Below, one piece after another: positions 1 through 64,000 of a stretch of 64,000 bases of DNA. The notes beneath the pieces are model-generated. The model did not search any database and had not been told where the DNA came from. It saw only the letters and a program-made list of their open reading frames with translations. Both the position numbers and the translations under genes were made by a program. Each line of letters begins with the position of its first letter. Position 1 is the stretch's first letter. The stretch is from Letharia columbiana. Taxonomy: Eukaryota > Ascomycota > Lecanoromycetes > Lecanorales > Parmeliaceae. The stretch covers positions 1,426,501-1,490,500 of the forward strand of contig NW_023501037.1 of assembly GCF_014066305.1 (NCBI RefSeq), given 5' to 3'.

Positions 1-2065
1 GACCCAAAAGTATCCGCCGAATCGGACTTCCATAGATCATTGTACGAATTGTACATGACCAGATTTGAGCCGCCACCAAAAGCCGCTTTCAAGCTGGCAA
101 TGGCCGCAGCTTGATTTTCCGGACTCGGTATAGCTTTGTTGTTTGGGTCTCCTTGATGAGGCCACCCTGACTCTGTAACGATGGTCGTCTTCCCTCCTGC
201 AGCTTCTGAAATTTGCTTGACCCAATTTTGTACAAATTGTCCCGCGTCCTCGGGCAAGGTATTGCCGTCGAAGAATGCGTGACAATTGATGGCACAGAAG
301 TCAGAAGCGGTGCAAAGTTCAATGTTGTTTTTCATGGCCACTAGACGATTTCAAGTCAGTATTTCGTCCTCGATATGAAATTCGGACTAGAAAGACTTGA
401 TTCTAGACTTTGATAAGAACGTTCTCCTGCGATATCTCGGACGAATCGAAGTGCGGTCCCAAATGAGACGGAGAGCCTCGAAAAGCATGCTTACTCATAG
501 TATCAACTGTAGCAATTGGCCCGTTATAGCCAGCAGCCTTGAGGGCAGCCTTAGCAGTGCCCTGGAATGTGATTTTGGAGTCAGTATTGCTTGTTTGATC
601 GGTGATATCGAGCTTTGAAACATCTTTTGAGAGTAAAACCTCCCAAGACATGTCTCAAGACTCAGGATTTGGTCCAAAAAGAGGACATGGACTCCGAGAA
701 CACGTACAAGGGCGGCAACGACTTGCGATGCAGATGCCTGACCCGTGTTCACCAGCTGTGCAGATTTCGGAGTCAGCATTGCTTATACGAGGTAGGGAAT
801 GAAAGACAGATCTTGGGAGTAGAAGGTTCTCTTGCTCCCGAAACATGTCTTGCCACTCAACTTCAATACAAAAATAGGAAGAATCGGCTCCGAAATACAC
901 GTACCTCGTTGCCAACACTAACGCTGTTCACGAGCGACCAGTCCCCGTTGACGGCCTGTCGGTCATGCCGGAGTCAGCATTTCTCCACAAAACACATATT
1001 GAATTACGAGACAGGTCTTGTAAGCAGTATCGAAGACGAAGCACATGTCTTCAACTCGAAGTATGTCCTGCGACTAAGAAAATTATACATATTAGTCCAA
1101 AACAATACGGAAATAACCTATACCGAGGATATAATTTGAACTTCGCTTTGTAAGGAATTGATATCGAAGATGCCGAGAAGAAGTTTGACGCTACTGTGCG
1201 TAGCAGCGATTACATTGCTAATTTGATTGCAGTCTGTTCCATACAACCGTACTACCTCATAGCCGCTGATTTTTTGAAAGTCAGCCGCCACTTGGGAAGC
1301 GCTTTTGCAGGATTGATCGGCGTTGTATGCTTGATGATTCCGGAGTCAGCATCACTCTTTCGGGAGGAATCTGAGTCGCGAGAGATGTCTTAGGAGCGAA
1401 GAACTCTTTAGACATGCCTGACAACTCATGAGACAGCATGAATGGGGAAGAATTGCCTCGGAAATTATAACGTACGCGTGTAAGCAACGGCGGAGCTGAA
1501 CCCTGGACCACTTGAACCAGATTCTTCGGGGCTTGGGTTTTGGCTTGGATTAGGTGAAGGCGCTGGGGCCATTGCTTCCGTGGGTTGAGACACCGGCGAT
1601 GGGGCTGGAGCTGGAGTCGACGGCTTCGGCTTGGGAGCTACCAAGGGCGAAGAGGGCGATTTCGAAGGAGGTGCTGGAGGGGTCGAAGGCGATTCTGGGG
1701 GAGGAGCTGGAGTGTTAGAAGGCGACTCGGCGGGAGGCGCTGGAGGGTTAGAAGGTGTTGGCGCCGGGGTGTGCGGCACAAGTCCCTTGTACACTGTGGT
1801 TGTAGACACGGGTTGATTTGCGTCGTTAACGTACACGATTACGTCTTCAGAATCATAGGTGACATATTTTATGTCAGTGACAACGTCGGTGACAACATCT
1901 GAACAGACATCCTGTCGTTTTGCGTGGTGATGTTTTAGATGGTCTGATCATGGCAAGTCAGCACCTTGTCCCGGATGCGGAATTGGCCAATTCCATACCA
2001 TGAAGTTGCGCCGTAGATAGCCGTAGCAATGCTACGCAACCGATTATGAGAAGTCCAGCCCTCAT
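1..2065 (-). CDS. Secreted GH17 cell-wall beta-1,3-glucan-modifying protein (Scw4/Scw10-like), 3' end outside window
   Basis: Glycoside hydrolase family 17 protein of the soluble-cell-wall-protein type, expected to cleave or transglycosylate beta-1,3-glucan outside the cell. Spliced exons read 2065-1999, 1943-1476, 1329-1124, 955-905, 755-708, 561-495 and 340 to the window edge, and the phases agree throughout. The protein starts with a hydrophobic signal peptide (MRAGLLIIGCVALL...). A His-rich stretch ending HAKR follows, a likely Kex2 site. Next comes a cysteine segment and a long Pro/Ser/Ala linker of PAPP-SPS repeats (about 1500-1790). The catalytic domain begins at AYTPYNADQSC. The GH17 acid/base is seen in SVGNE and the nucleophile in TESGWP. 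The stop codon lies left of position 1. Six introns are present and five of them belong to one repeated intron family (listed separately), a heavy load for one gene. Family assignment is firm; the exact substrate is inferred. Confidence 0.9.
341..494 (-). repeat. Introner-like element, intron 6 of the GH17 gene (diverged copy)
   Basis: 154-nt intron in phase 1 with donor GTAAGC. The 3' end reads AATACTGACTTGAAATCGTCTAG, matching the shared 3' block of the family (A-A-T-G/A-C-T-G-A-C-T-C). The rest is more diverged than in the other copies. Confidence 0.65.
562..707 (-). repeat. Introner-like element, intron 5 of the GH17 gene
   Basis: 146-nt intron in phase 0. It has donor GTACGT, a central GACATGTCT block and the 3' block AATACTGACTCCAAAATC before CAG. 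Confidence 0.8.
756..904 (-). repeat. Introner-like element, intron 4 of the GH17 gene
   Basis: 149-nt phase-0 intron lying directly after the codon of the catalytic Glu of VGNE. Donor is GTACGT and the 3' block is AATGCTGACTCCGAAATC. TTTCGGAG near the 5' end is perfectly complementary to CTCCGAAA in the 3' block. Closest relative by eye is 36876-37030 in the EFM5-like gene (shared GGAGCCGAT...CTTCCT and GGAGCAA...ACCTT...CT blocks). Confidence 0.85.
956..1123 (-). repeat. Introner-like element, intron 3 of the GH17 gene
   Basis: 168-nt phase-0 intron, the longest copy. It contains GAAGACATGTG, AAGACCTGTCTCG and the 3' block AAATGCTGACTCCGGCATG. The donor is GTATAG rather than GTACGT. Confidence 0.75.
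1330..1475 (-). repeat. Introner-like element, intron 2 of the GH17 gene
   Basis: 146-nt phase-1 intron. It aligns over its whole length with the copy at 44947-45093 (147 nt) in an unrelated gene. Both open GTACGTTATA, continue with GAGGCAATTCTT, TCATGCTGTCT and ATGAG, share TCCTCCCGAAAGAGT, and end GAATCATCAAG or GAAATCATCAAG. This pair is the clearest proof that the introns are copies of each other. Confidence 0.9.
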
Positions 2066-3343
2066 GGTGTTCGAACGCTCCTGCTCGCGGAAAACGTGTA
2101 TGAGGCCTCAAGTGTCCAGGCTTGGGTGGGATGTGCAGACGTTGTCAGCGTTAGCGATGCAGGGACGCATTGAAATGGTCCGGAGTATTAAGTGAATAGG
2201 GACAGCCACCGTCTTTGTTCTGTAGCAGAAAGGAATGGGCTTCGGCTTAAAGAGAGATATGTTTTGATAAAATTAGTTCGACGAAAGATTGAGAGGAAGC
2301 GCGTCAACGCGACGGTTTGCTTGCCCAGAGAGGCTTGGGTGCAGGGAGGGGTGGTGGATAGTGAGGAGGCAGTCAATGGCCTCAAGGGGTAGCTGGTGTC
2401 GACCGTGCTAATCAAACGAAGGTGGATTGCGTATCGCGCTCACCTCATACGCATGACGAAGTGACGATTCGCAGTTGAATATATCAGACGTGGTAAATAA
2501 GTAGGCAAATGATGGAAGGAAATTGAGAAGAGGTGTGAGTAAGGTAAGGTAGGTTACAATAATAGGGTCGCAAACCTCCTTCGTCCTTTGCGACTTGCGA
2601 CATCGTTGGCGCCGCCCCCTCCCCCAACCCGTCCCTCTTTCGCGCTTGTTCCAAATCACGATATGAATACCTAAGTAATGCGAGCATAATGGCAAAGCTT
2701 TCCGTATTTCTATGCCTGACAATTGGAACTATCAGATGTATCCTTCGTGGCCTTGGGGACAGCACTCCGCTCTCCTGCAAACGATTTATCTCAATCAATT
2801 CCGTCTCCAACTTCCCGACGCGGTCCTAAACAAGACGTGCCCTTTCGCATATTAGCGATCCTATCCTACTGAATGATTGATCGCATGAAAGCCCCAAAGT
2901 AATTTGGCAAGCCTAGGCCTGTTGGATGGTGACGGGCAGGAAGAAAGGGTGCGTACTGGACAGAGTGATGGTAAAATTCTAAAATTGTTAGTCCTGAAAA
3001 ACGGCGGCACGGCGCGCTTGCGAGCCAAAGATGAGATCCAGGAACCAGGCCATCCTGATAGGCTAATAAAGTAAAGTAGGCTGGCTGACTGGCTCACTCG
3101 CCAACATCAAAAGGAAACCACCTTGGCCTTCAAAGGCCAGGGAAAAGGATTACCTACGTTATTACCAGAATTGCTTTGCAAAGGGCCACGAGAACATCGA
3201 ATCAAATCACACATGATGATGATACAGTATATAAAATATTAGACATATGATCCAATCGTCTCCGAGAATGCATATTAATAACAAGAAGCCACCAGATGAT
3301 GGCCCCTATTGCCTTTTCTCCCCTTCCTTTCCTTTCCTTCCTT
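2066..3343. other. Intergenic region, no convincing gene
   Basis: Upstream of the GH17 gene (minus) and downstream of LCB1 (minus). Short open frames exist on both strands, but none gives a recognisable protein or a coherent splice model. The minus-strand frame around 2484-2830 has a short Leu/Glu-rich helix-like stretch but cannot be joined to a credible start. It should hold the GH17 promoter and the LCB1 3' UTR. Confidence 0.5.
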
Positions 3344-5704: not shown

Positions 5705-8700
5705 TTACGAGGATGACGAAGATGTTGCCGCTGCACTTGCACTCGCACTCGCCGCGGCACCCAGCCCGTTGAGGGCAGAGCCCGTCACTCGGTTACTGGT
5801 GTCATTGTTGTTGAGGCCAGTGGGTTGCATGAGTTGCAGGGGAATACTCAGGTTGCCGAGGTACTTCCCAGCGACGATTGGTCCGACGATCAAAGCCATG
5901 AATATGATGAACATGAAGAAGTAGAGCATGGCGAAGCGGATGACTCTACGCTTGCGTAGCTTCGATTGCTTTAGTGAGTAGATTGGAGGTCGGATTTGAC
6001 GACTGGAGAAATATTAACATTTCGCAGCTCCAAATTCGAACTCTGGAAAGACTTACCTTGGTCGAAGCCAGAAAAGCATGACGGAGTGGATTTTGTCGAT
6101 GTACGGCAATGCAATGACCGGAAGCATTATGAAGAGGAGTAGGTGCCCAAGGATAAAGTCTGCTGCAAAGAGGCCGAGTTCGGTGATCTTGCAGAGAAAT
6201 TCTCTCCCAGGCTGAGAGAGCGAGTGCCATCCCATATTGTACCATTTCCCAGTCCACCAAGCAATGTTCGAAGAATCGGACTTGAACTCACGAGTAAGAG
6301 CAAGGGCAATTATTAGCTTCAGGATGAATCTCTGGAGCGCAACGACTGCAATCATGCCAAGCAGCGCCTTCGCGAATACAAATCCCTCGAGGAAGAACAT
6401 GACTTCAAAGAAAGCGAGAAGCACGATGACGGCTATACCATGAGCAATGGCAGCGAGGACTGATCCAAACTTTTTGCAGCACATGCTGAGGAGGGGTCCC
6501 ATGCAGCAAGCCATTCCAAAAAGACCTGCCAAGACTCCAGCGTTTATTGCGATTGGCGCAAACGCAACAGCGGCGACCCGAATCAGGGAATTGGTGGCCG
6601 TAGCGTCTTTAACGCCAGTTTGTGCGTTAATGAAAAGGTAAGGAACCAGCGTTGAGCCCACAAGTAGCAATGGACTGATGATTTCACTGAAGAAAATGTT
6701 GGTGAAATGAGCACGTGGTGCGTCGCCAGAGAGCTTCGATGATGGTTCTCCGAGTGCTTTTCGCTTGTAACCAGTGAGACGAGTTCGCGATAGGCGGCAG
6801 AAGGCAATCCACGAGGATGCATGAGATCTGGAATTGCCGCGAGACAGCCATCTTAGGAAGTCACGGTAGTCAATGAAGAAGTCGTTCCACGAAAACTGGT
6901 GAGGGTTGAAGAGGAAGGGACAGATGCAGAAGGCGAGTAAGGACACCCAGAAGTATATCAGCTCAATTCCCCAGATGGTCAAGGTGGCGAATAGCAACAT
7001 CATTAAGAGTCGCGAACCTAAGTAGATTGAGGGACCAGCGAATCTCGAGTATAGGACGCCGAAGGGAATGCGAGCGGTTGCAAATCCACGGCCGGTTCCT
7101 ATGTAGCGCGCACCGCCGTAAGAAAGGTCCTGACTGAGGGAGCTGGCGTAGATCTGGCAAACAAACACTTCGAACAGAGGCGAGAAGGATGAGAAGTGTT
7201 TGGATAACCGAGTAGCTGCACGCCAAAATCCTCGTTCTGTAAGCTCCTGTACAATGAGAGGTATGAACGAGATGAAAAACACGATGAAAATGGAGACAAC
7301 GCAGCGGTACACCCAGTCGAGGATGGGAACAAGGTTGGCGCATCCGGTGGGCTTCAAAGGATCAGTGATAGGCTTATTCCTGTCGTACCTGCAAATGATG
7401 GTTTCGTGGCGGAGAGCTCCGATGTTAATCAAACAGATCATGAACATCTGAAGCGATGAGATGATGAACAGATTGTTGATGTGGAAACCAGGATGGGCGT
7501 AGTAGAACGAGAGGAATCGGTCCAGCGGAAGCTGAGTGCCAAGGTAATAGTACTCCCTGGAGAGCATTTGCTCGCCCATACCAGTACCGATCTTTGTTGT
7601 GAAGTTCAAGATGGATCCAAACCCAAGATCACGACCCTTTCCACATTGGTAATATTCACAGTGCTTTATGCGCCCACCCCGAAGCAGAGCATTCATACCA
7701 GCGTAAATATCTTCGTTTAGGTGCAGGCCTTTTTGCGCCTTGGAGACACCACCCCGAGTACTCATAAAGATACCATTGAGGAAATCGGGGTGACCGTAAT
7801 GCAATTTTCCACCAATCTGGGCCAGAGTTCGCGAGAAAAGAGTACCGAAAGTCTGTTCCTTTCCGGCAGCGACATCTCCTAAGATACCAATGTTCTCGGA
7901 AAAGATGTATTCACGAGCACCAAGGATAGCAACAGGGGCGACATCGCTAGCTGGCACACCGGGGGAGTATGGGGAGACGTTGTCAGTGGTCATCTCTTCG
8001 AACTCAGCAAGCACACTACGGATCTTCAAACATTCTTCGAGATAGTTGTCTTGGTTAGCGTCGATCAACTGAATGTATTCTCCGCGATAAAATATTAGTG
8101 AATGATTTTGGTTGTCCGATTTGCCGTCTCCCAGGATTGGGTTGCCAGACAGCTGTATCCGAAACTTGGGACGACGCATGCCATTGTCCATGAGCTCAGA
8201 GTGGCCGTCAATCAAAGCCGAGTAGAGACGCGGCTCTTCACCTTCATTGACAGGAGGTTCCTCGTCAAGATACGCAAGTTGCAGGTCAGGGTAGGCTCTG
8301 AGGAGGAACTCCGTGTTCTCGCGCTCTTCCTTGTTGAACTTGGCATATCGCTGCATAGAAACAACGATCTTGAACTTTCGGCGAGCCATGCGCTCCAATT
8401 CGCGCTCTAGTTTTTCCGAATTGCCTCCAAACATTTGCACGACCTCGGGATTTTCGACACGGTAAAGTAGTTTGATTGCACGGCTGTAGTTCATGAATCC
8501 AGAGATTGTACGGTAAAGCGTTTGAGAGCGCAATGAAGCCCAGATCCGGGTCCGCAGGGTATACTCCGGAGCAGCCGATTTGAAACCGATGCAGTAGAAC
8601 GGAAGATCGTCAATCTTGCTCTTAGCAGTATCCTTCTCGGATTTCTCATAGTCTCCGTTGAATTGAGATGTCTCATCAGCTAGAATCTTGGTGTCCTTGA

Positions 8701-11651
8701 CGAAACAGTCCCATTCGTGGGGATGCAACTGCTTGAGGTATTCGAGTAGAGTCACTCTTGAGTAGGGCTCGTCTTCGCGGATAATTTCCCGCAGAGAAAG
8801 AAGGATCTTCTCACCGTAGTGGGGAATCAGCACGGTGAAAGTTGGCATGTTATCAACGGGCAACGGCTCCGGGATGGGCGTGGACAGTGATTGGGCAAAG
8901 AATGAGATGCGGCGTTCGGCCTCGCTCTGTGTTGGAAAGAATTCCGTCTTGAATGAATGGTCCTCTTGAGACACAAAGAATGTCGGTGCACGTAAGGTCC
9001 TCTTGCCTTCCTGTTCCGAAGGCACCTGGTGGTAAAGCAGCTTTTGGACATGATCGATGGCCAGGAGGTGCTCTCGATACATGGAGATCACTATGGCGTT
9101 CCAGATCTGAGATATCAGCACCTTAGGCTTGTATTTGATTTCCATGTCGGTCGTTGCAAGGATCTTAGAGTAGACTCGTTTTGGCAGGCGAGAAAAGATG
9201 TTTCTCCAAGGAGTCCAGATGGAAACACCGAGGTAAAAAGACCGAGCCACGGAGAATACACAATTGAAGACGATGTACCAAAGATATGTGTCGAGGAAGA
9301 ACAGACAGATGTCAGTGACAAACATAAGACCGAGTGTGATCCTTGGTTGCTGTTTGCACAGAACGTCGCCGATGATTTTATCACCCACGCATCTGCTGAT
9401 CTTCATCTCGGACAGAATGCGAATAGGGTCACGGAACGACAATGTCAGGAAGAAGTAGGACTCAGAGAGTTTGGCTGTGAACACCAGAACCCAGAGACCA
9501 TAAGACATCCACATGTCATTGCCCTTTAGGTGAGGAAAGCTTGCCGTGAAGGTCTGACTCGCCACGTATTGCCGGGAGTTTTTCTTCATGTAGCTACCAA
9601 ACAGGCCACCAAGTGGCATGAAGGCGAAGAAGATGAACGTTGCAAGGGCGACGAAGAACTGAATAACACCGAGGATATGGGCGATCTTAGTTGAGTCGCT
9701 GACGCCGAAGATGTAAACACTGGGCGCGATGTTAATGACGAAGATGCCGATGAGGAAAAACAGACGCTTTGTCAGATGCTGCGCGCCAGCCCATCGACGC
9801 GGAACGTACATCCATTCAGCGACGGTAGCAAGGATCATGATTAAAGAAGCAAGGGTACCTCCGAGTGCAACAGCGGACCAATTAGCTGCAGGCTTCGGTG
9901 GATTGTTTAGTTGCTGTTGGTAGTGCTTGGTATAAAATGTTGGCGAGTTGTGGGATGTGTAGAACCAGAAAGCGGTCAGATGGATGACCCAGATGCGATT
10001 GAAATTGACGAGTAAGTGGAACCAAGATCTTGTTTCCTTGTAAGTCTTGAAGAACACCTTCTTCCACGTCACCTGGCTGAGCTTGAGATAGCGCTCCCCG
10101 GCTGGGAAATCCACTAGTCTGGTCTTGTCTTCCATAACGATCCTTTCAATGCCTTCAGGATACCAGAAAAGTTGGTTGATGTCATCGTAACCGATGACGC
10201 TGCTGTGATCTTTCTCCCGTCGGACATACTTGCCATCCAGAATCTCGTACCCTTGATCTCGGCAGTACTGGTACAATGGGGTGATAACAGTATTAAGGTA
10301 GGTGAACTCCTCAATTGGCTCCACTCGATTTTGACATTCGGGAGTCGCAAGATAGTCGAGGGCACACTTGTAGATAAAGCACAGACATTCGGGCATAAAG
10401 CGGACCTGATTGGCTTCACCCCAGCAAAGCAGATATAAAGCCACTTGCCGGACACGATCGTGCTGTGACATACGGTTCATGCGTGTCTTCCATCGGTACT
10501 CTGCAGCCTCCAGGCTGTTATCGCCCTCGAGGCTCTCGAGCGTCTGGTCCTCATTCTCAGGTTCCTTCGAGGCTGCTTTTTTCGCTGCCTTCCGTGCTTT
10601 GCGAGTCCGTCGGTTAGCCTTGCCAAGTTTCATGTTTGCGAATCCAACTGCATCGTCCAGATCTAGATGTGCCGCAAAGTACCAACGCCGGTAATTGGCA
10701 TTGTCGCCACCAATGTAGTCGGCGTGGAGAGACAGCAAAGCTTGGTTTGGCGTCATACGAGACGCACGAGAATCAAGTAGAGTCATGAAATGATCATACA
10801 TGTTCCTCATGCTGTCACGCTGGAAACCGAATTTGGCAGTCAAGTCCATGAATATGTCTTCAACTTCCTCCTTTGAGACAGGGATTTGAGCGTCCGAAGT
10901 CCAAGCAGGATATGGCTCGCGAGATCTTTGACCGGCAGGCAGCGCATTGCCGTAGTCCATTCCATAAATAGGAGTTGACGCTCCAGACGAGCGGTTGCCT
11001 CCATACGAGATCTGTGATGAAGCCGGTCGATACGTACGCCCTCCACCTTGACCCTCATTGTAGCTGTTGTAACGCTCATCGCCACGACCATAGTAGTCCA
11101 TTTCAGCAGCTCGAGCCATGTCGGACCTCATGGTGAAGTCGCTGAAGGTCTCCGAGTCTTCTTCTGAATCGTGACCACGACGCTTTGGTTTGGCTCTGCA
11201 GATTGTAAGTAGAAATCTCAAAGAAGATAGAAGAAGCACAAACCCATAGCCGCCCTGACCATACTGGGGTTGCTGCCCTGCAGCTGGCGTTCCTTGGTCG
11301 TAGTATTGATCGTTGTAGTACTCGTCTTGGTAGCCTTGCTGATGACCTTCGTAGTAGCCGCCGTCCTGTTGGTATTGGTTGGTGGCATCGGCATTGTAGT
11401 ATCCCCTGTCGCTCGTGAGCAAAAAGTGTGCCAATGTTTGAAGTGCAAACTCACGACTCGTCATAGTAGCCACCATTCCCATTCCCATTTCCTTGCTGCT
11501 GGTGTCCATAGTCTTGCGGCGGCTCGCCATGCTGCGGATATTCCTGCTGGTCGTAATAGCCTTGATTGTGCTCGTCCTGATAATATGAATCTGTGGCTTG
11601 ATGTTCATGGCCATAGCCATCGTCGTAGTGGTCTTGAGGATGGCCCGACAT
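5705..11651 (-). CDS. FKS1: 1,3-beta-glucan synthase catalytic subunit (GT48)
   Basis: Plasma-membrane glucan synthase that polymerises UDP-glucose into beta-1,3-glucan, with Rho1 as regulatory partner in the family. Exons are 11651-11455, 11405-11244, 11195-6057 and 6002-5705, coding for 1931 residues, normal for the family. The first ~130 residues are Tyr/Gln/Gly-rich and disordered. The Fks1 domain follows, then a first set of membrane helices, the large cytosolic GT48 domain (about 850-1400), and a second set of helices ending in a short Ser/Ala tail. The region known in yeasts as echinocandin hot spot 1 reads FLTLSFRDP and hot spot 2 reads DWVYRCVV. The last intron falls just after the codons for FWLRP, so a single-exon reading would lose the final ~100 residues including the last helix. 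The gene faces a GH72 glucanosyltransferase across 2.2 kb. Confidence 0.97.
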
Positions 11652-11684
11652 GATTGAGGATGACCGAAAACTCTGAGAATGTGC

Positions 11685-11800
11685 CTGCATACCGTTAGAC
11701 GACGACTAGAAAGACGGGTGGTAGTGAAGACAATGAGAAGGGATTGGTAAGACAAGGAATGTGGATGCAACCAGAGACCTATGGACGCGGAGAAACTTAC
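11685..11800 (-). other. Probable 5' UTR intron of FKS1
   Basis: On the minus strand GTAAGT at 11800 and CTAACGGTATGCAG ending at 11685 make a good donor, branch site and acceptor. They lie 33 nt upstream of the FKS1 start codon. Not a member of the repeated intron family. RNA evidence is needed to confirm. Confidence 0.45.
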
Positions 11801-13861
11801 CTCAAAAGCTACCCATTGAACACAAGAATGGAATGAGATTATAAAACGGTAGGCTGGTGATGGGTTGATTGAATATGACGATCAATCTGTCGCGTGCAGT
11901 TTTGTTTTGCCAACCTGAAACTTGGGTACAAGAAGCGAATGAAAAGTCTGATCCACCCCACAACTATTCTTGATTATTATGGCGACGATGTCAGATTGCT
12001 TCTATCGAGTGCTGAAATGATCGAGGATGGATGACGTTGCTGATGGACTGGTGTGGTGTTGATAACGAACGTGGAGGAAGGACCAGGCAAGTTGTTTGAC
12101 TGCGCAGTTGCTCCGCGCTACCAAATTTTGCGCTGTGCCTTCCAACAGGTCCAGTGAACGATACTGCTGACCTTTTCTGCCAGTAACAACCCCGAGCGAG
12201 CGACAGATATCGCCAGCAGCAATGACAGGCAGATCGATTGAGGTGCGGAAGTAAAGAGAGACGGTGTGAGGGTAGGAGAAGAATAGGAGGGGGCTTGGTG
12301 AGAAAAGGGAGAAACAAAGCACGGCGATACCCACCAGGATTTTCCGCTAAGCTCAGGTGGATTATCACACCCTACAGAAGCTGTTGTGATTGGCTGACGC
12401 TTGTACTGATGTAATTTGTTGACATGTGTACCTTACAATATTACATACCCCAAACCTGCTGCCTGTACGGAGTAACAGCGCCCACCAGAGCACACACAAA
12501 GTACGGACTTAGTCGGTTCCCACAATGCCAAGGTCCTTCTACATTATTGACTTACTGTTCATGTCGATTCCGACACACATTAGGGCGACAACTCTTCTCC
12601 AACCGAAATACTCAATAACTTTGTCAGGAAGGCGGAATGTAGAGTTTGCGAGGTCCCGATATACATGGTAATTGATCCCGCCAGTTTCGACGGCCACAAG
12701 CTATAAGACATCACGGCTTCCTCGATGCACGGATTCTACGACTAGCTAGAAGAAGCCATTATGATGCCCTCCTTCTCTCTTACCAAGTTTTCTAATCGGT
12801 ATCCCTCTTTCTGTTTTGTGAGCAAATCGAATGAAGAAAATGGTTGGACCGGTTGATAGGGCAGCGAAATCGAAAAGGGGATAAAAATAGTTGTTGGTGG
12901 CAAGTCCTTGCTGGGATCATCGCGAAGATCATGGATAAAGGGGCACCCACCCCCAGTCTCACGGCCTATCTGCTGCCATGAATAGATTGGAAATTTACAG
13001 CCGCTGCATTACAGTACATGTATGGTATCTCGATAAAATACGGTTTTCAATACTGCTGACTTGCTCAACCCCATGAAGGTTTATAGGGGGCTCAGAAAGC
13101 TTATGCTCCGGTTGCCGAGACAGAGAGAGCGATGCTGCCTGCAAGGCCACGTCCGCACCGGCTTGTACGCCATACACGCTGGCTCTTGATATTTATGCCC
13201 TAGACTTACCATCCACCGGTCACCGTAGCAGCAGTAACCACTTGGCAACGGTTGCTGGTCCTACCCGTATGAGCTTGTGCACGTGACCTGTGTCTATCTT
13301 TGCCCTTTTATTAGCGTGAAGGCTTGCGTGGCTCGCTCAGGAGGAGGCAAATTGGACCAACCTAACTACATAGGTAGGTAGAGTAACTCACCAATGACCT
13401 ACGGAGTACCTACCTTACCTATTTCGACTTAGCTCAAAGACGAAGTACGTGCCGTGTTTTAGAGGCTTAGACGCCGACTTCTGCGGCAATGGCATAGGTG
13501 TTTCGAAGTCAACACTACTTTACTTAGTACTTACCTTACTTTACAGTTTACTATTCAAAATTCCTGTCAAACCCTCTCTTCTCCTCATTACTCACTATCA
13601 TTCTCTCACCACTTCCCATCTCTCATTCATACCCTCGTTTGTCTACTTGGTCTCAGAGCGACACTTCATTGAGGCATTGGGGCGGGGCCGAGTCTCTCGT
13701 TCACCTGCACCTTCCCACTTCATTGTTAAGTGTTTCTTAATTCCCTTTCGGGCGCAGGACAACAGGACACGCTCGACTCTTGCATTGACATCATCAACAA
13801 CAAATTCATTCAATCATCATCCACATCTCCTTCTTCATCGCTACACCCATCACTAGTAGTC
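11801..13861. promoter_or_regulatory. Divergent promoter region of FKS1 and the GH72 gene
   Basis: About 2.2 kb separate the two start codons and no gene is seen between them. The part near the GH72 start is pyrimidine-rich (13560-13860), as often seen in highly expressed fungal promoters. Around 13371-13425 there are repeated TAGGTAGGTA and ACCTACC tracts and a TACGGAGTA palindrome. No specific factor site can be claimed. Confidence 0.4.
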
Positions 13862-18241: not shown

Positions 18242-18403
18242 GCACGTCTCTGTATAGTGCATTGTGGGCGTTGTACCGTGCATATCGGCACTCTCTAGGC
18301 ACCATGGTCATTCATACTCCGCTCTCCCTCGCCCTGAATATTTAACAAGGGTGGCAATTACCGTATCGTCCATCTAAGATACTTTCAGCCTTATGTTCTC
18401 AAC

Positions 18404-30123: not shown

Positions 30124-31502
30124 ATGGATCCGGAGGTTATCTCCAACTTCCTCTCCGAACAGCGAGAGGCTGCGCCAGAAGACCTACAGCAGAGCTTCTT
30201 GACGATCGAGGACTACTGGGACCGAAAGCTGTGGCATCAGCTCACCGATGTACTTGTCGAATATTTCAATACCATTGCCAGCGCCCCGCAAAGACTGGCC
30301 CTGTTCCGCAAATTCATTCTGAGTTTCGCTGAGAAGATAAATCAGCTCAAATTTGTGTCGTTGGGATTCCTAGCAGCTTCGCAATGTCAAGGTTCGTATT
30401 GTAGTTTGCCCAGGAAGTTAATACATAATCCCTAACTATGGTAAAGATGACAATGAGCGTCTCAGCTTCCTTACAGATCTCACTAAGAAGGTCAACAAAC
30501 CGTCGTCTCAAGATGCCTACGTCTACGCCTTGGTAGCTGCGGCGGAGGTCAAGTTACAATTGCATGACTTGAGCGGTGCTCGTAAAGACCTCGATACGGC
30601 AGATTTAATACTTGATACGTTCGACTCCGTTGAAACCGAGGTCCATGCGACGTTCTACCGCATTAATGCCAGCTACTACCAAGTAAGCCTCATATCTCAT
30701 CTGAACAACATCCTTTGCTGACCATGACAGGCCAACGAAGACTTCGGCGCCTATTACAAGAATGCTCTCCTCTACCTCGCCTGCATCGACCTCTCTACAC
30801 TTACTCAGACAGACGCCCAATCCCGCGCTTACGACCTTAGCATAGCGGCTTTAGTCTCTGATGCCATTTACAATTTCGGGGAACTCCTGCTGCATCCCGT
30901 TCTTGAGACTCTTGCGTCGACTGCCCACGCTTGGCTCAGAGATCTCCTGTATGCGTTCAACCGCGGCGATCTGGCCGCTTACAGTGTCCTTGAAGCGAAT
31001 TTGTCCAAGGCCCCGCAGCTTGAGCAACATAAAGAGTTCTTGTACCAGAAGATCTCCCTGTCCGCACTTACGGAAGCAGTATTTCGCCGTCCTCCACACG
31101 ACCGGGCCATGACATTCCATACGATCTCGAGAGAGACGAACGTGGCGCCGGCGGAGATCGAGATATTGATCATGAAGGCCTTGAGTTTGGGGCTTTTGAG
31201 GGGCAGTATCGATCAAGTTGCGGAGATTGCACGGGTTAACTGGGTACAGCCAAAGGTGTTGGATCCTGGGCAAATCGATGGGATGAGGGTACGACTGAGA
31301 GAGTGGGATAGCAGTGTCAATCAGTTGGGGAATTGGATCGAGGGGGTAGGGAAAGACGTCTGGGTGAGTTAGCTTTTCAAATCCATGTCTTCCTGATTCG
31401 TATTGCGTTTTGAGTTCCGAGGCTTGTCAAAGGAATGAAAGCAATCCTCCAATCTGGTCCCACAAGAGACAGCCTGACTCTAATATCCTATAGGCTGCTT
31501 GA
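30124..31502 (+). CDS. RPN9: 26S proteasome regulatory subunit Rpn9
   Basis: Lid subunit of the 19S regulatory particle. Exons are 30124-30391, 30447-30682, 30731-31363 and 31494-31502, 381 residues. The N-terminus has IEDYWDRKLWHQLTD, then helical repeats, then a C-terminal PCI domain (KISLSALTEAVF...PAEIEILIMKALSLGL). The last exon encodes only two alanines and the stop, joined to VW after a 130-nt intron. That intron is twice the local norm and its 3' end reads GCCTGACTCTAATATCC, which weakly recalls the repeated-intron 3' block. Confidence 0.93.
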
Positions 31503-36428: not shown

Positions 36429-37789
36429 ATGAGCGGAACTGAACAAGATGATGACGAGCAATTGTGAGATCCTCTCCAACGTGATAGTGGACAGACGTTT
36501 CTAGTGCCAACCTGCCTCCATTCTTTGCAAGGCTTATGACTGATGTAATAGTAAATGAAGTTCGTTTATTAATAGTAGCTAGGGAGCTTCACGGTGATAC
36601 TCTTGCGGCATTGCACGAGTTCTACTCGGAAAGGGAATTGAAAGAAAAGCGCTTTCAAGACCTGAAAAGCAGTATTGAGCAAAAGAGCTCTCCGGCCCAA
36701 TTGAGCATGGACATGTTTTCAGAAGATTGGAATGCAAGTCAATTCTGGGTATGCCTCAGATATCTTGAAATCCTTTCTGGAGTCTAACGTGCTCAGTACA
36801 GCGACGAAACAGCGAGTGTCCTTGCAAAACAACTTCTCCAGGGTTCCACTGCTGCTACAACCAATATTTGTATCGTACGTACATCTTGGAGCCGATCCTT
36901 CCTGTTCGGTATTGAAATTGAGTCACACGACGACTTTCCGGAGCAAAGGGACCTTTCTACTTCCAAAACCTGTCTTGCAACTCCACTTTTCTGCCTCGAA
37001 GAAACAATACTGACTCCAAGAGCTGCGTAGATCTCTGCGCCGAGTGTGTTCGTGCAGCTCAAAAACTTGATTGTCAAATAACATTCCGCAGTTCCCATAT
37101 CTTGTTCATCTCTGGCTAAACGATGTCAGGCTTCAGACAAGTACCAGGTCTCGAGTATCTGCCTTCTCGAATTCGACCATCGATTTGACGTTTTCCGAGA
37201 ATTCATCCATTATGACTTTGAACATCCATTAGCGCTTCCTGGTCGGTCGACAACCTTGTCCGTTCGTTAGTAGTCGTCAACATCTAACAGCGCTTATCAG
37301 GTGACATGAAGGGCAAGTATGACTGCATCCTCTGCGATCCCCCATTCCTGAGTCCTGATTGTCAGACGAAAGGTAAAGCTCGTGACAAAAGCGCAACAGG
37401 ACAATCGGCTGACTGCTTGTATGACAGCCGCCATGACGATTCGCTGGCTCTCGAAACCTGCCTTACCAGACGCAGATATACCTAGCCCAAGGATCATCGT
37501 CTGCACCGGCGAGAGGATGGAGGTACGAATATTCTGAGTCTTAATTGCCTATTTCATCCCAAACCTTGCGCCTTGAGACACGTCTAGGCAGTTGCTCACG
37601 ACTCGAAAACCCTTCCCGAGTAGAGAATGCTGACTCCGAAATCATCAAAAGGAGCTCGTGCTCAGGCTGTACCCTGGAATCACAACGACCACCTATGCTC
37701 CTCAGCATGCTCAGAATCGACTCAGCAATGATTTCAGTTTGTACGCAAATTTTGAAAGCGAGGCATGGTCATGGCGACGAGGAGCATAG
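36429..37789 (+). CDS. Protein-lysine N-methyltransferase EFM5-like (N6-adenine-MTase fold)
   Basis: Seven-beta-strand methyltransferase of the EFM5/EEF1AKMT1 type, which methylates translation elongation factor 1A. Exons begin at 36429 (35 nt), 36583 and 36797, and several more follow. The key splice joins give DDDEQLELHGDTLAALHEFYSEREL, then MDMFSEDWNASQFW-YSDETASVLAKQLL, ISAPSVFVQLKN, VSSICLLEFDHRFDVF, and the catalytic DPPF motif in YDCILCDPPFLSPDCQTK. The end is ESEAWSWRRGA. Two introns (36876-37030 and 37523-37651) belong to the repeated intron family. The first intron (119 nt) is also long. The acceptor chosen at 36582 is supported by the resulting match; another acceptor at about 36528 would insert about 18 foreign residues. 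Confidence 0.82.
36876..37030 (+). repeat. Introner-like element in the EFM5-like gene (copy 1)
   Basis: 155-nt phase-0 intron with donor GTACGT, GGAGCCGATCCTTCCTGTT, CGGAGCAAAGGGACCTT, AAACCTGTCTT and the 3' block AATACTGACTCCAAG. Best relatives are 756-904 and 45758-45915. Confidence 0.85.
37523..37651 (+). repeat. Introner-like element in the EFM5-like gene (copy 2)
   Basis: 129-nt phase-0 intron with donor GTACGA, GAGACACGTCTAGG, CTCACGACTCG, CTTCCCGAGTAGAG and the perfect 3' block AATGCTGACTCCGAAATCAT before CAAAAG. Confidence 0.85.
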
Positions 37790-44827: not shown

Positions 44828-45444
44828 ATGACGTCCCGCAAAAAGATCACGGCCATCACCAAGGCCGCCAAGAAGTGCAATTGTGCTGTGTATTTAAAGT
44901 CTGGAGTGCACCCACCGGGCGTGATGGTTGGGGAGTGCGGTGGAGAGTACGTTATACTTTCGGAGGCAATTCTTTCCCGGTCATGCTGTCTTATGAGTCG
45001 TCAGACATGTCTACAGAGTTCTCTGTTCCTAGGACATGTCTCACAACTCTGAATTCCTCCCGAAAGAGTAATGCTGACTCTGAAATCATCAAGACAAGGA
45101 GAACTAGACTTAAAGGAGTGGGTGGGGAGTGTCAAGGTAGCAAATTTCCTGCTTCTAATGTTACATCCGCTCCTCTGCTTGATAGAACATACGTCCCTAG
45201 ATCAGTCAAGAGAATTCGCTGTTGCTGGCATTCCGCTGACGTGAGAATCCTACGGAAATAGCGACTGAGGTATAAAGATTACAAGCTTCTATGCTCGGAA
45301 ACTGTGGAGCAAGGCCGGTTGCTGGTCAAGAGTGGTGATGTGAAGGAGTTCCACTCGATGAAAGCATTGGCCCATGATTTGGGCGAGTGCGAGATCTTGG
45401 ATTGGTGGAGCTTTCATATGGGATTTACGAAAGGCGACGGTTAA
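44828..45444 (+). CDS. Small protein resembling the Prp3 C-terminal/DUF1115 domain
   Basis: Exons 44828-44946, 45094-45136 and 45262-45444 give 114 residues. The start MTSRKKITAITKAAKKCNCAV, then SGVHPPGVMVGE and the segment LKEWVGSVKRLRYKDYKLL followed by a short C-terminal helix and ILDWWSFHMGF follow the pattern of the DUF1115/Prp3_C domain. This is the C-terminal half of RWDD2 and Prp3, with a glycine-proline turn, a W/R-rich helix and a terminal MGF/LGI. As a stand-alone domain the function is unknown. An in-frame ATG at 44792 would add 12 residues. Intron 1 is the best preserved repeated-family intron of the window. Intron 2 (45137-45261, 125 nt) is also long and contains CCGCTGACGTGAGAATCC near its end. 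Confidence 0.6.
44947..45093 (+). repeat. Introner-like element in the Prp3-C-like gene (best hairpin copy)
   Basis: 147-nt phase-2 intron, donor GTACGT, ending GAAATCATCAAG. Nearly full-length match to 1330-1475. It folds on paper into nested stems: 44957-44966 with 45056-45066, 44995-45011 with 45033-45049 (15 of 17 pairs) and an apical 45013-45018 with 45021-45026 (ACAGAG/CTCTGT). Confidence 0.9.
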
Positions 45445-45653: not shown

Positions 45654-46648
45654 TTACCATGGCAATGAGCCATCTTTGTTTGTGAACGTCCCATGTTCTC
45701 CATCCTTCCCTGCCTTTGCCAACCCGCAAGCGTTCAAAGCACCAACGCTAGGATGAGCTACGCACATCTCCGAGTCAGTATTGCTTATTCAAGGCAAGGA
45801 ACCTCCATTGATGAGATAGGTCTCAAGAGTAGGAGCAGGGTTCTGCTCCCGGACTATGTCTTGTGGCTCGAAATTTGGTGCAAAATAAGGAAGAATAAAT
45901 TCAAAATGTGCGTACCTCCCATACCTCCACTCGGTCCTGTGGCATTCAGCCCAGGACAGCACACATTGACCTTGAAGCCTTCTCCCTTGAGCTTCACCGC
46001 ATTCGTAGCCATGATCATGTTCAAAGCTGCCTTCGAAGCCTTGTACTCTGGGGAGTCGAGACCACTTGATGATTTCGGAGTCAGCATTGCTGTTTTGGGT
46101 GGATTTCTGAGTCGCGAAACTTGTCTTAAGAGCAGATAATTCTCTGACGACTCATAATGCGGAAGCATTGCCTACTAGTACTGGGAGGCCGGGTTCAGAG
46201 TATCGCCTATACTACCTAGCTCCGAGCTCATAAAGATAATGCGTGGCTGCGGGGATTTACAGAGGAGAGGAATGAAAGTCTCGGGGAGACAGGCTGCACT
46301 GATAGCGTTGGTGTCCATAATCTGTGCGTAACGTTGGCGGGTCGTCAGGCCTTCGGGTAAAGCTCGTTGTGAAATACCCGCATTGTTTATGAGGACATCC
46401 AGATGGCCAAACTTCCCTTCTACGGTGGCGAAGGCTTTGGAGATGGAAGAATCAGAGCTGATGTCAAGCTCAAGTGCTTCGATGGCAAGGTTGGAGAAGG
46501 AAGATGCCGCGGCTTCGGCCTTTGGAGAAGGAACGGCATCCCATATGGACATGGTAAGAAGGGTTTCGGTGGCGAGCTTTTCGGAGATCCCACAGCCGAT
46601 ACCTTGATTGGCGCCACTGATAAGCACAATCGTCTTAGAAGAGGCCAT
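45654..46648 (-). CDS. Short-chain dehydrogenase/reductase
   Basis: Classical SDR oxidoreductase, presumably NADP(H)-dependent and cytosolic; substrate unknown. Exons 46648-46176, 46064-45916 and 45757-45654 give 241 residues. The cofactor site reads ISGANQGIGCGI, followed by DVLINNAGIS, the region of the catalytic Ser in IIFMSSELGS, and the catalytic YxxxK in YKASKAALNMIM. The PG motif is VNVCCPGLNATG. The C-terminus reads GTFTNKDGSLPW. Both introns are members of the repeated intron family. One lies just before the YKASK active-site exon and one just after the PG motif. Confidence 0.88.
45758..45915 (-). repeat. Introner-like element in the SDR gene (intron 2)
   Basis: 158-nt phase-1 intron, donor GTACGC, with ATTCTTCCTTATTTTG, ACAAGACATAGTCCGGGAGCA, GAGACCTATCTC and the 3' block AATACTGACTCGGAGATG. 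Groups with 756-904 and 36876-37030. Confidence 0.82.
46065..46175 (-). repeat. Introner-like element in the SDR gene (intron 1, short copy)
   Basis: 111-nt phase-2 intron. It starts GTAGGCAATGCTTCCGCATT, which aligns inside the longer copies. ATTATGAGTCGTCAGA, TTAAGACAAGT and CGCGACTCAG follow, then the perfect 3' block AATGCTGACTCCGAAATCAT. Relative to 44947-45093 it lacks parts of the 5' and middle sections. Confidence 0.85.
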
Positions 46649-56575: not shown

Positions 56576-56998
56576 TATCACGATTCACTCTTTGCAGCAT
56601 TTTTCCTAAAACTGCCTTGCTCCTTATTCCTTACTCAGGGAGGGATCCTAGTAGCTGGAGTAGCAACATTCACCAATTCTTCCAGTAAGCCGGGGCATCC
56701 GTAAATCTACAATTCGATTCCTATTGTGCCCAATTCAACGAAGTGGCTCTCCGAAGCAGCCACCGCTAAGCCTCGTCCGTCATTAATGAAATCGTACAAG
56801 CTGCTTCGACCAGCCTTGCAACAAAGTGCTTGTCCAAAAAGAGCTACTCGATCCTCATATCCTTACGCCCTTCTCATTCTCTCTACTAGCCGTCAGCTAC
56901 AGCTAGACAATTACCCGGCGCCATAAACAGAGCCTGTTGACTCGCTCTTATCCTTTCGCAATATTTTACCCTTCCACAGTCATCTTTGCGTCTGGTAT
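56576..56998. other. Intergenic region upstream of SLM1
   Basis: No recognisable gene. It probably contains the SLM1 promoter and 5' leader. A 66-codon frame at 56726 has no support. Confidence 0.4.
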
Positions 56999-57148
56999 GT
57001 ACGTTCTGGAGCAAGAATTTCCTGAATCAAGGCCGCAATCTGGGTCGCATGACATGTTTCGGGAGCAGTGCCGAGGGGTTTTCCCCCCAATCGGTGCCCC
57101 CTAGAAAGTCTTATGAGCTGGCATGGACTGACGACGAAACCTTCATAG
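56999..57148 (+). repeat. Introner-like element in the SLM1 5' leader
   Basis: 150 nt with donor GTACGT, TTCTGGAGCAAGAATTTCCT, CATGACATGTTTCGGGAGCA (close to GGCAAGACATGTTTCGGGAG in copy 756-904) and a 3' end GACTGACGACGAAACCTTCATAG. The acceptor lies 4 nt before the SLM1 start codon, so it is best read as a 5' UTR intron. It is identified by sequence only, as no coding frame constrains it. Confidence 0.7.
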
Positions 57149-57152
57149 TGGA

Positions 57153-61740: not shown

Positions 61741-62290
61741 CAGTAGGGACTTTCAGACTAGGAGTTTTCAAGTTCTACATACACTGTCTTAACTGTCTTA
61801 CGCTAAGAAGATACTTTCGGGCCTCTAGATCGCCGTTAGTGTTATTTAGTAATTCAGCTTTTAGCACGCTTAGACAGCTAATTCAGCTTTTAGCACGCTC
61901 AGACACACTCGAGGGCTTATATTAGCAATTCAGTCTAGACACACTAAAGTCGGATTACGCTAATAACGAAATCTACGAATATATATAATAACTTTATACA
62001 TATTTATTGAATTAAAAAATTTTATATATAAAATTTATTCTTTATATAATTCTTTATAACTTTTATATATATATCTTTTTCTAATTATTATTATTTATTT
62101 ATTTATAAGGGATTGAAAGTTTTGGTGTGTGTGTTAGTGTGTCTTAACAGACTAAGATATATCGTTATTCTGAGGGACACTAAAATCTCGGAAATTACGA
62201 TCCAAAGACCCGAAAGTAAAATTCTTAGCGTAAGACAGTCAAGACAGTGTATACACAGCTTAAAAACTCCTAGTCTGAAACCCCCTACAG
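61741..62290. mobile_element. 550-bp MITE with ~85-bp terminal inverted repeats
   Basis: Left end CAGTAGGGACTTTCAGACTA and right end GTCTGAAACCCCCTACAG, flanked by TA on both sides (61739-61740 and 62291-62292). The inverted repeats continue for about 85 bp (61741-61826 and 62204-62290) and include ACACTGTCTTAACTGTCTTA and its partner. The centre is extremely AT-rich (61970-62110) and has a tandem repeat of AATTCAGCTTTTAGCACGCT at about 61850 and 61880. No coding capacity. It resembles Tc1/mariner-type MITEs and is a different family from the 53.6-56.4 kb elements. Confidence 0.9.
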
Positions 62291-62473
62291 TAATGCACGC
62301 GCTTTGCTACTTATTGAGTTGTTCAATGTCTTAGATTTTAACCGCTACTTTGTCTCGAAGCGCGCCTGTCACGTGCTATAGCTTCGCCGCGTGTTTGCTC
62401 TGCGGAAACATGGTGTCTTGATCTTCTGCCATCCTTTGGAGGGATTAGTCCCCCGAATTACGATTACGGAAGC

Positions 62474-64000
62474 ATGAAGAAGGGGCTCATGAGAACTGGT
62501 GTCTTCATTGCACCCAACAGCTACCATGGCTCAAACCATAGAACCATCAATGGGACCATCAAACATGACGAGTCCGGCCAAGTCTTCACCGAGGTTTCAT
62601 GTCCAGGAGGACCTATGACCTTAGACTGGGTATGGAAAACTCAGGGTAGCTCCAGGGAAGCGGCATGCTTCAGATCATCAGGTCCTGGATGTTCATCACT
62701 CGCCAACATGGCCATTCGAAGCGCCCTTAGTCATTCATTCAATATCACTGCCGAGAGTCTTGAGGGGCTACCTTGGGAGGTTGCAAGTCTGCTTTGGGAA
62801 AGACTCGTCGCTTCGTATGCTCAATTTTGACTCCTGACTGGCACAAAACAAGGCTAACAAGAGGACTTGCACAGACAACTAGTCAGCGTGAAGGTCTGGA
62901 AGGCTTTTGCTGTTGCGTATCCGAATGAAGGCATCGATGCCCTGAAACGAAAGCATCACGTCATAGCAAGACCCAACATGAAACTCGGCGATTATGTCGC
63001 CTCTCTTATCTCACCCTTATATCATTGGGTGACCTTCCTGTCGCTGAGCAACGTCACCTGCGTACGTATTTCCGGAATCCATCTTTCCTATTTCGGATGA
63101 ACAGTTGGGTCTTGGGACATGCCATGGGATTGTCTACTTTGTAGACATGTTCCAAGGCTCAATGCACCCCTTCAAAGGCACTACTGACTCCAAAGTTGTA
63201 AGCCAGTCCCGCACCGATCTTGTCCAGATTTCCCAGCTTACTAACCTCGGAGTCTTGACTATCGGACGGAAATTTACCACTCCAGACATTGGGCTCGACG
63301 ACAGTACGTCTTCATTTCGGCGCGATCTCTTTGTAATCTCTACCCTAACCTGAGTTCTGATACACGTGTCGAGAGTATCGTACTCATTGGCCTTGTTTTG
63401 TGAATCCTTTTCCACAGCAAAGAAGCAGTACTGATTCGCGAAACTTGAAGGCATCATCAGAGGCTGGGGACGAAGTGCTTCATCAACAGATGCCTTTAGA
63501 TTACTCCGAGTCCTCAATTGCCGTTCGCAAAAGGACATCACTGCCAACGTCTTCGCCCATCTCAACCAATTTCCGGCGCTATCGGTATTCAATGTCGAGG
63601 ACTGCAATCTTGGTCCCAAACACAGACAAGCGGCACAAAACCATAAATGGAATTACAAAACGGGAAAAGACCTCAGCGAATGGCTCGTAAAAGGCGGTGC
63701 GACTAGCGCTGGATGGGATTCGATAGTTCACGCGAGCTTTCAACTTGGCGGAGCATTTAGCAAGACGACATTGACGGCTGAAGGTGTGGAGGCCATTGAT
63801 GCAATCCCAGTACTGCACATGTCCATAGGAGCCAATCAACCAGACGCGCTGGTCGACGTAACAGGAGATCAAAGCTTGAGGTCATTCTACCGTGAGTGGG
63901 TTGACACCTTTAAGTTCCCAAATAAGAGACCGTTGAGTCAGAACATTGCACCAAGCATCAAGATGTCTTACCAAAAGCGAACCTTACGAGCATCAAAGCA
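62474..64000 (+). CDS. Conserved fungal protein of unknown function, 3' end outside window
   Basis: Exons 62474-62814, 62875-63061, 63208-63303 and 63452 to the edge. The spliced protein reads through ITAESLEGLPWEVASLLWER, VWKAFAVAYPNEGIDALKRK, DYVASLISPLYHWVTFLSLS, LTNLGVLTIG, GLDDSIIRGWGRSA, NQFPALSVFNVEDCNLGPK, LVKGGATSAGWDSIVHASFQ and AIDAIPVLHMSIG. This pattern recurs in hypothetical proteins of filamentous ascomycetes with no assigned role. The start is uncertain; an upstream exon cannot be excluded. Introns 2 and 3 belong to the repeated intron family. Ignoring either breaks the frame, and the 63451 acceptor is the only one giving an open frame. Confidence 0.7.
63062..63207 (+). repeat. 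Introner-like element in the right-edge gene (copy 1)
   Basis: 146-nt phase-0 intron, donor GTACGTATTTCCGGA, with GTAGACATGTTCC and the 3' block ACTACTGACTCCAAAGTTG before CCAG. Confidence 0.8.
63304..63451 (+). repeat. Introner-like element in the right-edge gene (copy 2)
   Basis: 148-nt phase-1 intron, donor GTACGT, ATTTCGGCGCGATCTC, CACGTGTCGAGAG and the 3' block AGTACTGATTCGCGAAACTTGAAG. More diverged than copy 1, which lies only 96 nt upstream. Confidence 0.7.

What the first reader, a model, noticed from the sequence alone, without database searches (positions are those of the whole stretch)
341..63451. A dispersed family of at least 13 near-copy introns (introner-like elements) in six unrelated genes
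Seen: introns at 341-494, 562-707, 756-904, 956-1123, 1330-1475, 36876-37030, 37523-37651, 44947-45093, 45758-45915, 46065-46175, 56999-57148, 63062-63207 and 63304-63451 share a GTACGT-like donor, ACATGTCT-like internal blocks and a 3' block around AATGCTGACTCCGAAAT. They lie in genes with no common ancestry and on both strands. Every copy is in sense orientation to its host gene, and the 12 within coding sequence occupy all three codon phases. Known: introner-like elements have been described in some Dothideomycete and related fungi. Inferred: this genome has had, or still has, an active intron-multiplying element. The density (13 in 64 kb) suggests a large genome-wide family.
Basis: partly seen in the sequence, partly recalled or inferred. 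Interest (0 to 1): 0.92.

Follow-up and report, generated by a model that had tools for sequence, protein, structure and literature searches.

The report
Self-multiplying hairpin introns in wolf lichen
A lichen-forming fungus carries several hundred related introns that seem to have copied themselves into new genes, most of them descended from a few hairpin-shaped parent introns, which gives a new place to study how introns are born.

Summary
Profiles built from copies outside the window hit all 13 intervals (30-146 bits; reversed control at best 9.5). By published assembly statistics the genome is Letharia columbiana, a lichen-forming Lecanoromycete. The family is genome-wide but smaller than extrapolated: roughly 750-1,050 copies, the window about ten-fold enriched. 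They are not near-copies: three subfamilies, at most 91% identical among 86 full copies. Coding flanks lie in sense for 49 copies, antisense 6, unresolved 34; no target-site duplication. At seven positions in two genes, relatives' proteins show no intron-sized break. Each subfamily consensus folds into a long hairpin (z -6.2 to -7.9) that decays in resident copies with little or no compensation. Best reading: fungal introner-like elements spreading through an RNA intermediate. New clue: three back-to-back introner pairs with no exon between (0.04-0.07 expected), as predicted if introns re-enter already spliced junctions. A new member of a known kind; I found no report from lichen fungi.

The parts
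341..494 (-). degenerate introner, GH17 gene
   Evidence: 39.1 bits, independent profile; frame open after removal
562..707 (-). introner, subfamily C, GH17 gene
   Evidence: 124.0 bits; frame open; best-scoring genome relative 84%
756..904 (-). introner, subfamily B, GH17 gene
   Evidence: 123.8 bits; frame open; best-scoring genome relative 84%
956..1123 (-). most degenerate introner of the GH17 gene; possibly older
   Evidence: 30.0 bits; frame open; the Alectoria protein P0126 has five extra residues at this junction
1330..1475 (-). introner, subfamily A, GH17 gene
   Evidence: 145.6 bits; frame open; best-scoring genome relative 90%
36875..37030 (+). introner, subfamily B, EFM5-like methyltransferase gene (Pfam N6-adenineMlase)
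   Evidence: 122.9 bits; host domain from a typed spliced fragment; start corrected from 36876
37523..37651 (+). introner, C-like, same EFM5-like gene (junction ERME|ELV)
   Evidence: 57.5 bits; clustered with C; frame open after removal
44947..45093 (+). introner, subfamily A, host gene not identified
   Evidence: 146.2 bits; no Pfam match for a host fragment
45758..45915 (-). introner, subfamily B, SDR gene
   Evidence: 98.3 bits; frame open after removal
46065..46175 (-). 5'-truncated introner, matched by the subfamily A profile, SDR gene
   Evidence: 78.0 bits, model 18-147; frame open
56999..57148 (+). degenerate introner just upstream of an ATG, presumably of the BAR/PH-domain gene that follows (donor may be GTATGT at 56995)
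   Evidence: 30.9 bits; domains BAR_4 and PH_20 in the ORFs downstream
63062..63206 (+). introner, subfamily C, unnamed gene
   Evidence: 102.4 bits; acceptor CCAG at 63206 gives a continuous frame, read by eye
63304..63450 (+). degenerate introner, same unnamed gene
   Evidence: 44.7 bits; frame continuous by eye

Best explanation
[quoted passage not shown] Whole spliceosomal introns, complete with donor GTACGT, branch point CTGAC and AG, multiplied into exons of unrelated genes. Each of at least three subfamilies came from a source intron whose RNA folds back over most or all of its length, leaving the two terminal Gs unpaired. After excision such an RNA (stable as a hairpin, ends near each other) is inserted seamlessly in sense into a new site through an RNA step: reverse splicing into RNA or transcribed DNA, followed by conversion to DNA. 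Once resident, a copy is kept mainly as a working intron and its hairpin decays. Shown here: the family, sense bias, absence of target-site duplications, hairpin-forming subfamily consensus, loss of pairing with divergence, uninterrupted relatives at the sites tested, three zero-exon tandems. Inferred: splicing in vivo, the RNA intermediate, reverse splicing, and the need for the hairpin.
For: Independent profiles and reversed control; 35 vs 0 and 510 vs 21 pattern counts. After excision, 75+75-nt joined flanks are open in sense for 74 of 89 copies, antisense 38 of 89, junction shifted by 1-2 nt 56.5 of 89 on average, unspliced 18 of 89; random positions 36% open. Coding strand 49 sense vs 6 antisense, 34 unresolved, p=1.8e-9. 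Neighbours within 1.5 kb: 37 pairs on one strand, 1 not; that one lies in two genes. No TSD: 4-nt repeat at the junction in 1 of 90 vs 0.36 expected; nothing stands out over offsets of +/-12. Same-gene copies no more alike than others (0.572 vs 0.595), so not local duplication. Subfamily consensus MFE -47.8, -64.8, -56.6 kcal/mol, z -6.2, -7.3, -7.9. 91 copies: median z -1.87 vs -0.21 for 87 flank controls; stability falls with divergence, rho -0.55. Pairs kept about as after shuffling in A and C (0.870/0.868, 0.822/0.825). Relatives without an intron-sized break at 2 SDR and 5 GH17 positions. Three zero-exon tandems vs 0.04-0.07 expected.
Against: No RNA-seq was available, so splicing is inferred from frames and motifs, and the scripts looked for GT and AG near the model ends, so those dinucleotides are partly by construction. 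Inverted ends are also a DNA-transposon trait; yet they are imperfect here, since no 5' arm matched the 18-nt 3' motif within 3 mismatches. RNAalifold finds no common structure over 58 copies of all three subfamilies. Only 0-1 pairs per comparison are doubly compensated between subfamily consensus sequences. Subfamily B shows a weak excess of kept pairs (0.787 vs shuffle mean 0.777, maximum of 300 shuffles 0.790; doubly changed pairs 36 vs mean 26.8, maximum 37), which could mean some maintenance or shared ancestry. A near-terminal stem is predicted in only 2 of 22 A copies (B 24 of 26, C 11 of 23). The branch-point A is unpaired in consensus A and B but paired in C. Consensus sequences fold better than single copies in part by construction. 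34 of 89 copies are unresolved for coding strand and 6 look antisense.
Confidence: 0.72

Rival explanations
1. Non-autonomous DNA transposons (MITE-like introners) with terminal inverted repeats, moved by a transposase; those that splice well survive in genes.
For: Inverted ends, partly palindromic interior, hundreds of dispersed copies. Most non-ascomycete introner families show TIRs and/or TSDs (PMC9860276, section 4).
Against: No TSD at any offset tested; sense bias although the element is nearly symmetric; GT and AG lie at the element ends. Of 75 matches to the end motif in the window and L002-L070, 64 lie in a defined copy on its strand, none on the opposite strand of one, and 11 outside; read by eye, most of the 11 look like ends of degenerate or truncated copies, with L061, L012 and L020 unclear. 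No end of a larger element was recognised.
Confidence: 0.15
2. Hairpin intron RNA is captured as filler during double-strand-break repair and copied into DNA, as proposed for symmetrical Hypoxylon introns.
For: Seamless sites with only weak bias; a hairpin that leaves the terminal Gs unpaired and, in B, next to each other, as in PMC8469720 and PMC12403724 (sections read).
Against: Random breaks predict equal orientations before selection, and give no reason for three insertions exactly at an introner 3' end. G at -1 (39 of 90) and C at -2 (39 of 90) are commoner than other bases.
Confidence: 0.2
3. Ancient shared introns with convergent splice motifs, or local duplication within genes, rather than a mobile family.
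For: Short GTACGT and CTGAC motifs are splicing signals, and the oldest members score only about 30 bits.
Against: Similarity spans the whole intron up to 91% identity in different genes; same-gene copies are no more alike; relatives without an intron-sized break.
Confidence: 0.02

Closest known systems
Fungal introner-like elements of Dothideomycetes (Fulvia fulva, Dothistroma septosporum, Zymoseptoria tritici; van der Burgt 2012 not read, known through others; Collemare 2015, PMC4457414, parts 1-2 of 4 read)
   Same: Whole spliceosomal introns in many unrelated genes, several families per genome, decay towards ordinary introns, stable predicted RNA structure, insertions co-linear with transcription
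   Different: Another class (Lecanoromycetes). Most similar sampled pair 91% rather than the 98-99% reported for active species, so nearer the low-identity state reported for D. septosporum. Sequence relation to published families was not tested.
Internally symmetrical sister introns and stwintrons of Hypoxylaceae and Xylariaceae (PMC8469720: sections 9 part 1, 14, 17; PMC12403724: abstract, sections 14, 16)
   Same: Terminal or near-terminal inverted repeats, intron hairpin, terminal Gs unpaired, no TSD, symmetry lost with age
   Different: Ordinary 147-156-nt introns in the three subfamilies, read as single introns; hundreds of copies in one genome; zero-exon tandems, which I did not see mentioned in the parts read
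TIR/TSD introners of algae and protists (Huff 2016 recalled; Gozashti 2022, PMC9860276, section 4 read)
   Same: Dispersed elements that create introns, with inverted ends
   Different: No TSD; both splice sites carried by the element. That survey states that ascomycete families have no TIRs; this one has imperfect ones.

Membership tests
Fungal introner-like elements | similar full-length introns in many unrelated genes | tested here: met
   91 of 98 hits above 30 bits have a GT..AG defined by script; genome counts
Fungal introner-like elements | similarity runs from donor to acceptor | tested here: met
   86 of 91 defined copies match model positions from 3 or less to 139 or more of 147
Fungal introner-like elements | efficient splicing | not testable with these tools
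   no RNA data; only frame evidence
Fungal introner-like elements | recent gain at positions empty in relatives | tested here: met
   7 positions in 2 genes; protein evidence only, no DNA of relatives. P0029 and P0084, both listed with a 21,145-bp contig, look like two unspliced halves of one gene, which suggests that the metagenome proteins are called without splicing
Fungal introner-like elements | stable predicted secondary structure | tested here: met
   consensus z -6.2 to -7.9; single copies median -1.87, 29% below -3
Fungal introner-like elements | sequence relation to published families | not tested
   published family sequences not at hand
DNA-transposon introners | target-site duplication | tested here: not met
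   90 copies
DNA-transposon introners | terminal inverted repeats | tested here: met
   imperfect: consensus 60-72% identical to its own reverse complement, shuffles mean 50-51%, maximum 58-59%; no 5' arm within 3 mismatches of the 18-nt 3' motif
DNA-transposon introners | autonomous partner with transposase | tested here: inconclusive
   no larger element recognised among loci fetched by the end motif; no genome-wide transposase search made
[D1,2] stwintrons | internal intron splitting the donor between positions 1 and 2 | tested here: inconclusive
   copies read as single introns; not screened systematically

The most novel reading that the evidence does not exclude
Introners here insert through the spliceosome at exon-exon junctions of already spliced RNA. 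Three places in the genome have one introner directly abutting the 3' end of another with no base of exon between them. A 2012 review (PMC3443670, passages read) suggested that reverse splicing may favour positions that have already undergone splicing. If true, this is direct sequence evidence for intron transposition by reverse splicing, with the hairpin protecting the RNA intermediate.
Probability: 0.3. Interest if true: 0.85.

Novelty: new member of a known kind. Interest (0 to 1): 0.62.

Why it matters
How new spliceosomal introns arise is an old open question. This lineage offers hundreds of related introns of graded age in a fungus with a sequenced sister species (L. lupina), so gains can be dated and polymorphic copies sought. 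It is an exception to the statement in the 2022 survey that ascomycete introners lack inverted repeats. It suggests a division of roles: the hairpin characterises the source introns, whereas resident copies keep mainly the splice signals. The zero-exon tandems give a specific, countable prediction that distinguishes reverse splicing from DNA transposition and break repair.

Tried and rejected
Target-site duplications: none; the best of 3,750 offset/length combinations has z 3.6, which I take as chance for that many tests. Local or within-gene duplication: rejected. Known RNA family: none at Rfam's gathering scores for the window. Consensus structure over all three subfamilies: RNAalifold gives no pair. 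Co-evolution of the two arms within copies: own-arm duplexes not significantly better than swapped ones (A p=0.95, B p=0.12, C p=0.73); B leans that way here and. I first thought the stem was kept between subfamilies by compensatory change; only 0-1 doubly compensated pairs per comparison were found, so it is kept mainly by conserved sequence. In simulated unconstrained divergence 0 to 2 of 200 sequences are as stable as the real one in five of six comparisons, 26 of 200 in B to A. 'Younger introner downstream' in the tandems: clear in L071 (older 73%, newer 90% to consensus B), slight in L050 (85%, 89%), not in L065. A first automatic acceptor rule took AGs too close to the branch point and was replaced by one asking for at least 11 nt; the second still ends the 63062 copy 4 nt early. 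A call for A1 aligned the 13 intervals on mixed strands; its identity figure is not used.
Full report
WHAT WAS CHECKED. The window is G000:C2:1426501-1490500 of a 52,243,142-base genome in 161 contigs. Contig C1 has 2,188,364 bases and C32 666,803. A published table gives Letharia columbiana Lecol_v1.0 161 contigs, largest 2,188,364, 52.2 Mb, and a figure of 666,803 that I take to be the N50 (PMC9146135, passages only). The genome is therefore that wolf-lichen fungus (Parmeliaceae, Lecanoromycetes; classification recalled). The nearest named protein to the SDR host gene is from L. lupina.

THE 13 INTERVALS. Profiles built from 73 copies that lie outside both the window and the 20 tiles (and from subfamilies A, B and C among them: 19, 23 and 20 copies) hit all 13 intervals at 30.0 to 146.2 bits. 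The same sequence read backwards gives at best 9.5 bits. Removing the introns leaves the GH17 glucanase frame open across five of them, the SDR frame across two and the EFM5-like frame across 37523-37651. A closely similar 417-residue protein (P0121, 98% identical over the alignment, source not shown) is recorded with a 2,014-base contig. By my arithmetic from the window coordinates that is slightly too short to hold the gene with all its introns, so at least one is missing there.

HOW MANY. Pattern AATGCTGACTCCGAAATC: 35 exact sites, control 0; 510 with up to 3 mismatches, control 21. In the window plus 20 evenly placed 10-kb tiles (264 kb) the pattern found 11 of 17 copies (the 15 defined copies plus two truncated ones at window 46071 and L025 2708), so 489 net sites mean about 750 copies. 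The tiles alone (4 copies above 40 bits in 200 kb, two weaker ones above 20) give about 1,045, with a wide error. The window holds 13 in 64 kb, about ten times the tile average. The tiles were regularly spaced on contigs C1 to C7, not drawn at random.

SUBFAMILIES. Of 98 hits above 30 bits, 91 had a donor and acceptor by the script's rule. 86 of these were full length and were clustered: B 26 copies (about 156 nt, 69% mean identity), C 23 (147 nt, 69%), A 22 (147 nt, 82%) and 15 others. The highest identity is 91%, and copies in the same gene are no more alike than others. Most of these loci were fetched by similarity or by the end motif, so the sample favours well-preserved copies.

GENES AND STRAND. 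With all defined copies excised, 75 nt of each flank joined gives an open frame in sense for 74 of 89 copies, against 38 in antisense, 56.5 for shifted junctions and 18 unspliced. By codon bias the coding strand is sense for 49, antisense for 6 and unresolved for 34 of 89; phases are 23, 15 and 11. In close neighbours 37 pairs share a strand and 1 does not; that pair is in two genes of the window.

INSERTION SITES. No target-site duplication was found. G is commonest at -1 (39 of 90) and C at -2 (39 of 90); AG and CG are the commonest final dinucleotides (13 of 91 each). At two SDR and five GH17 positions, proteins of relatives were tested for an ungapped alignment within 8 residues. SDR (15 unnamed metagenome-type proteins): 15 of 15 at the first position, 3 of 15 at the second; the other 12 are 244 residues long against 241, a difference far too small for an intron of 111 or 158 nt read through. 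GH17: 17 of 17 at four positions and 16 of 17 at the fifth; the exception, P0126 from Alectoria, has a five-residue insertion at the junction of the oldest copy. Of the 17, four come from named genomes and may be spliced predictions, one (P0121) has no source shown, and 12 are metagenome-type. P0029 and P0084, both listed with a 21,145-bp contig, look like two unspliced halves of one gene, so metagenome-type proteins seem to be called without splicing and an uninterrupted one means no intron, unless the contig derives from RNA.

STRUCTURE. The elements are imperfect inverted repeats over much of their length: a profile made from the sense strand also hits the same copies in antisense, and consensus sequences are 60 to 72% identical to their own reverse complements against 50-51% for shuffles. 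No 5' arm, however, matches the 18-nt 3' motif within 3 mismatches. Consensus RNAs fold at -47.8 (A), -64.8 (B) and -56.6 (C) kcal/mol, z -6.2, -7.3 and -7.9; B folds end to end, A leaves the last 20 nt free. In 65 of 71 subfamily copies both terminal Gs are unpaired; a stem of at least 4 pairs joins the end regions in 24 of 26 B, 11 of 23 C and 2 of 22 A copies. Single copies are weaker (median z -1.87 of 91; 87 flank controls -0.21) and weaken with divergence, rho -0.55, p 2e-8. Within subfamilies pairs are preserved as after shuffling in A and C; B is near the top of 300 shuffles. Own arms fit not significantly better than swapped arms, and RNAalifold finds nothing over 58 copies of all three. 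The hairpin thus seems to belong to the source introns rather than to what is maintained after insertion, with B a possible partial exception.

ZERO-EXON TANDEMS. Among 48 neighbour gaps, one of which I take to lie inside a single element, two are zero once the ends are extended to the splice sites; the next smallest is 51 before extension. A genome-wide pattern for an introner 3' end followed at once by GTACGT finds three sites, control 0: L065 (474-580, 581-725), L050 (454-676, 677-830) and L071 (449-610, 611-749). From the frequency of GTACGT in the tiles, 0.04 to 0.07 are expected (P 8e-6 to 6e-5). This model ignores a possible preference for AG sites; I judge, without a computation, that such a preference would not raise the expectation near 3. 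Removing both introns leaves at least one frame open over 150 nt in L050 and L065, weak evidence in itself; L071 was not tested.

COMPARISON. The closest known kinds are fungal introner-like elements and the symmetrical sister introns of Hypoxylaceae, which share seamless insertion, co-linearity with transcription and fold-back structure (PMC8469720, PMC12403724, PMC4457414; parts read as listed under Closest known systems; PMC3443670 and PMC10512270, passages only). The 2022 survey states that ascomycete introners have no TIRs or TSDs (PMC9860276, section 4); this family has imperfect inverted ends and no TSD. Searches of the held library for introner with lichen (2 papers, incidental by their titles) and with Lecanoromycetes (0), for intron gain with Lecanoromycetes (8, none on introners by title) and for Letharia, introns, genome and spliceosomal (1, on Cladonia) found no report. 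The library lacks most subscription papers, and the supplements of the 2022 survey could not be read, so Letharia may be listed there.

VERDICT. A real, well-preserved introner family in a fungal class where I found none reported, with one uncommon mechanistic clue. The family assignment is firm; the RNA route is likely; insertion at spliced junctions is a lead.

Noticed in passing
L050:454-830, L065:474-725, L071:449-749: Pairs of introners lie back to back with no exon base between them.
   Followed up: partly
L050:454-676, L064 around 495-713, L058 (minus strand): A longer type of about 220 nt that by eye seems to hold a second inner hairpin; not in subfamilies A-C.
   Followed up: no
window 31367-31487, +: Weak further match to the family (23.3 bits, E 1.7e-5), possibly an old degenerate introner.
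   Followed up: no
P0126 (Alectoria fallacina), junction of window 956-1123: The predicted protein has five extra residues at this junction, as if Alectoria has an intron there with a misplaced acceptor; the oldest copy may be shared.
   Followed up: no
P0117 (Alectoria fallacina): A predicted protein joins an EFM5-like methyltransferase to an SDR; both lie in this window at 36-38 kb and 45-46 kb, so it is probably a mis-joined gene model.
   Followed up: no
window 6053-11881, -: Open frame of 1,942 codons (stop to stop) that reads like a 1,3-beta-glucan synthase (recalled from sequence, not searched).
   Followed up: no
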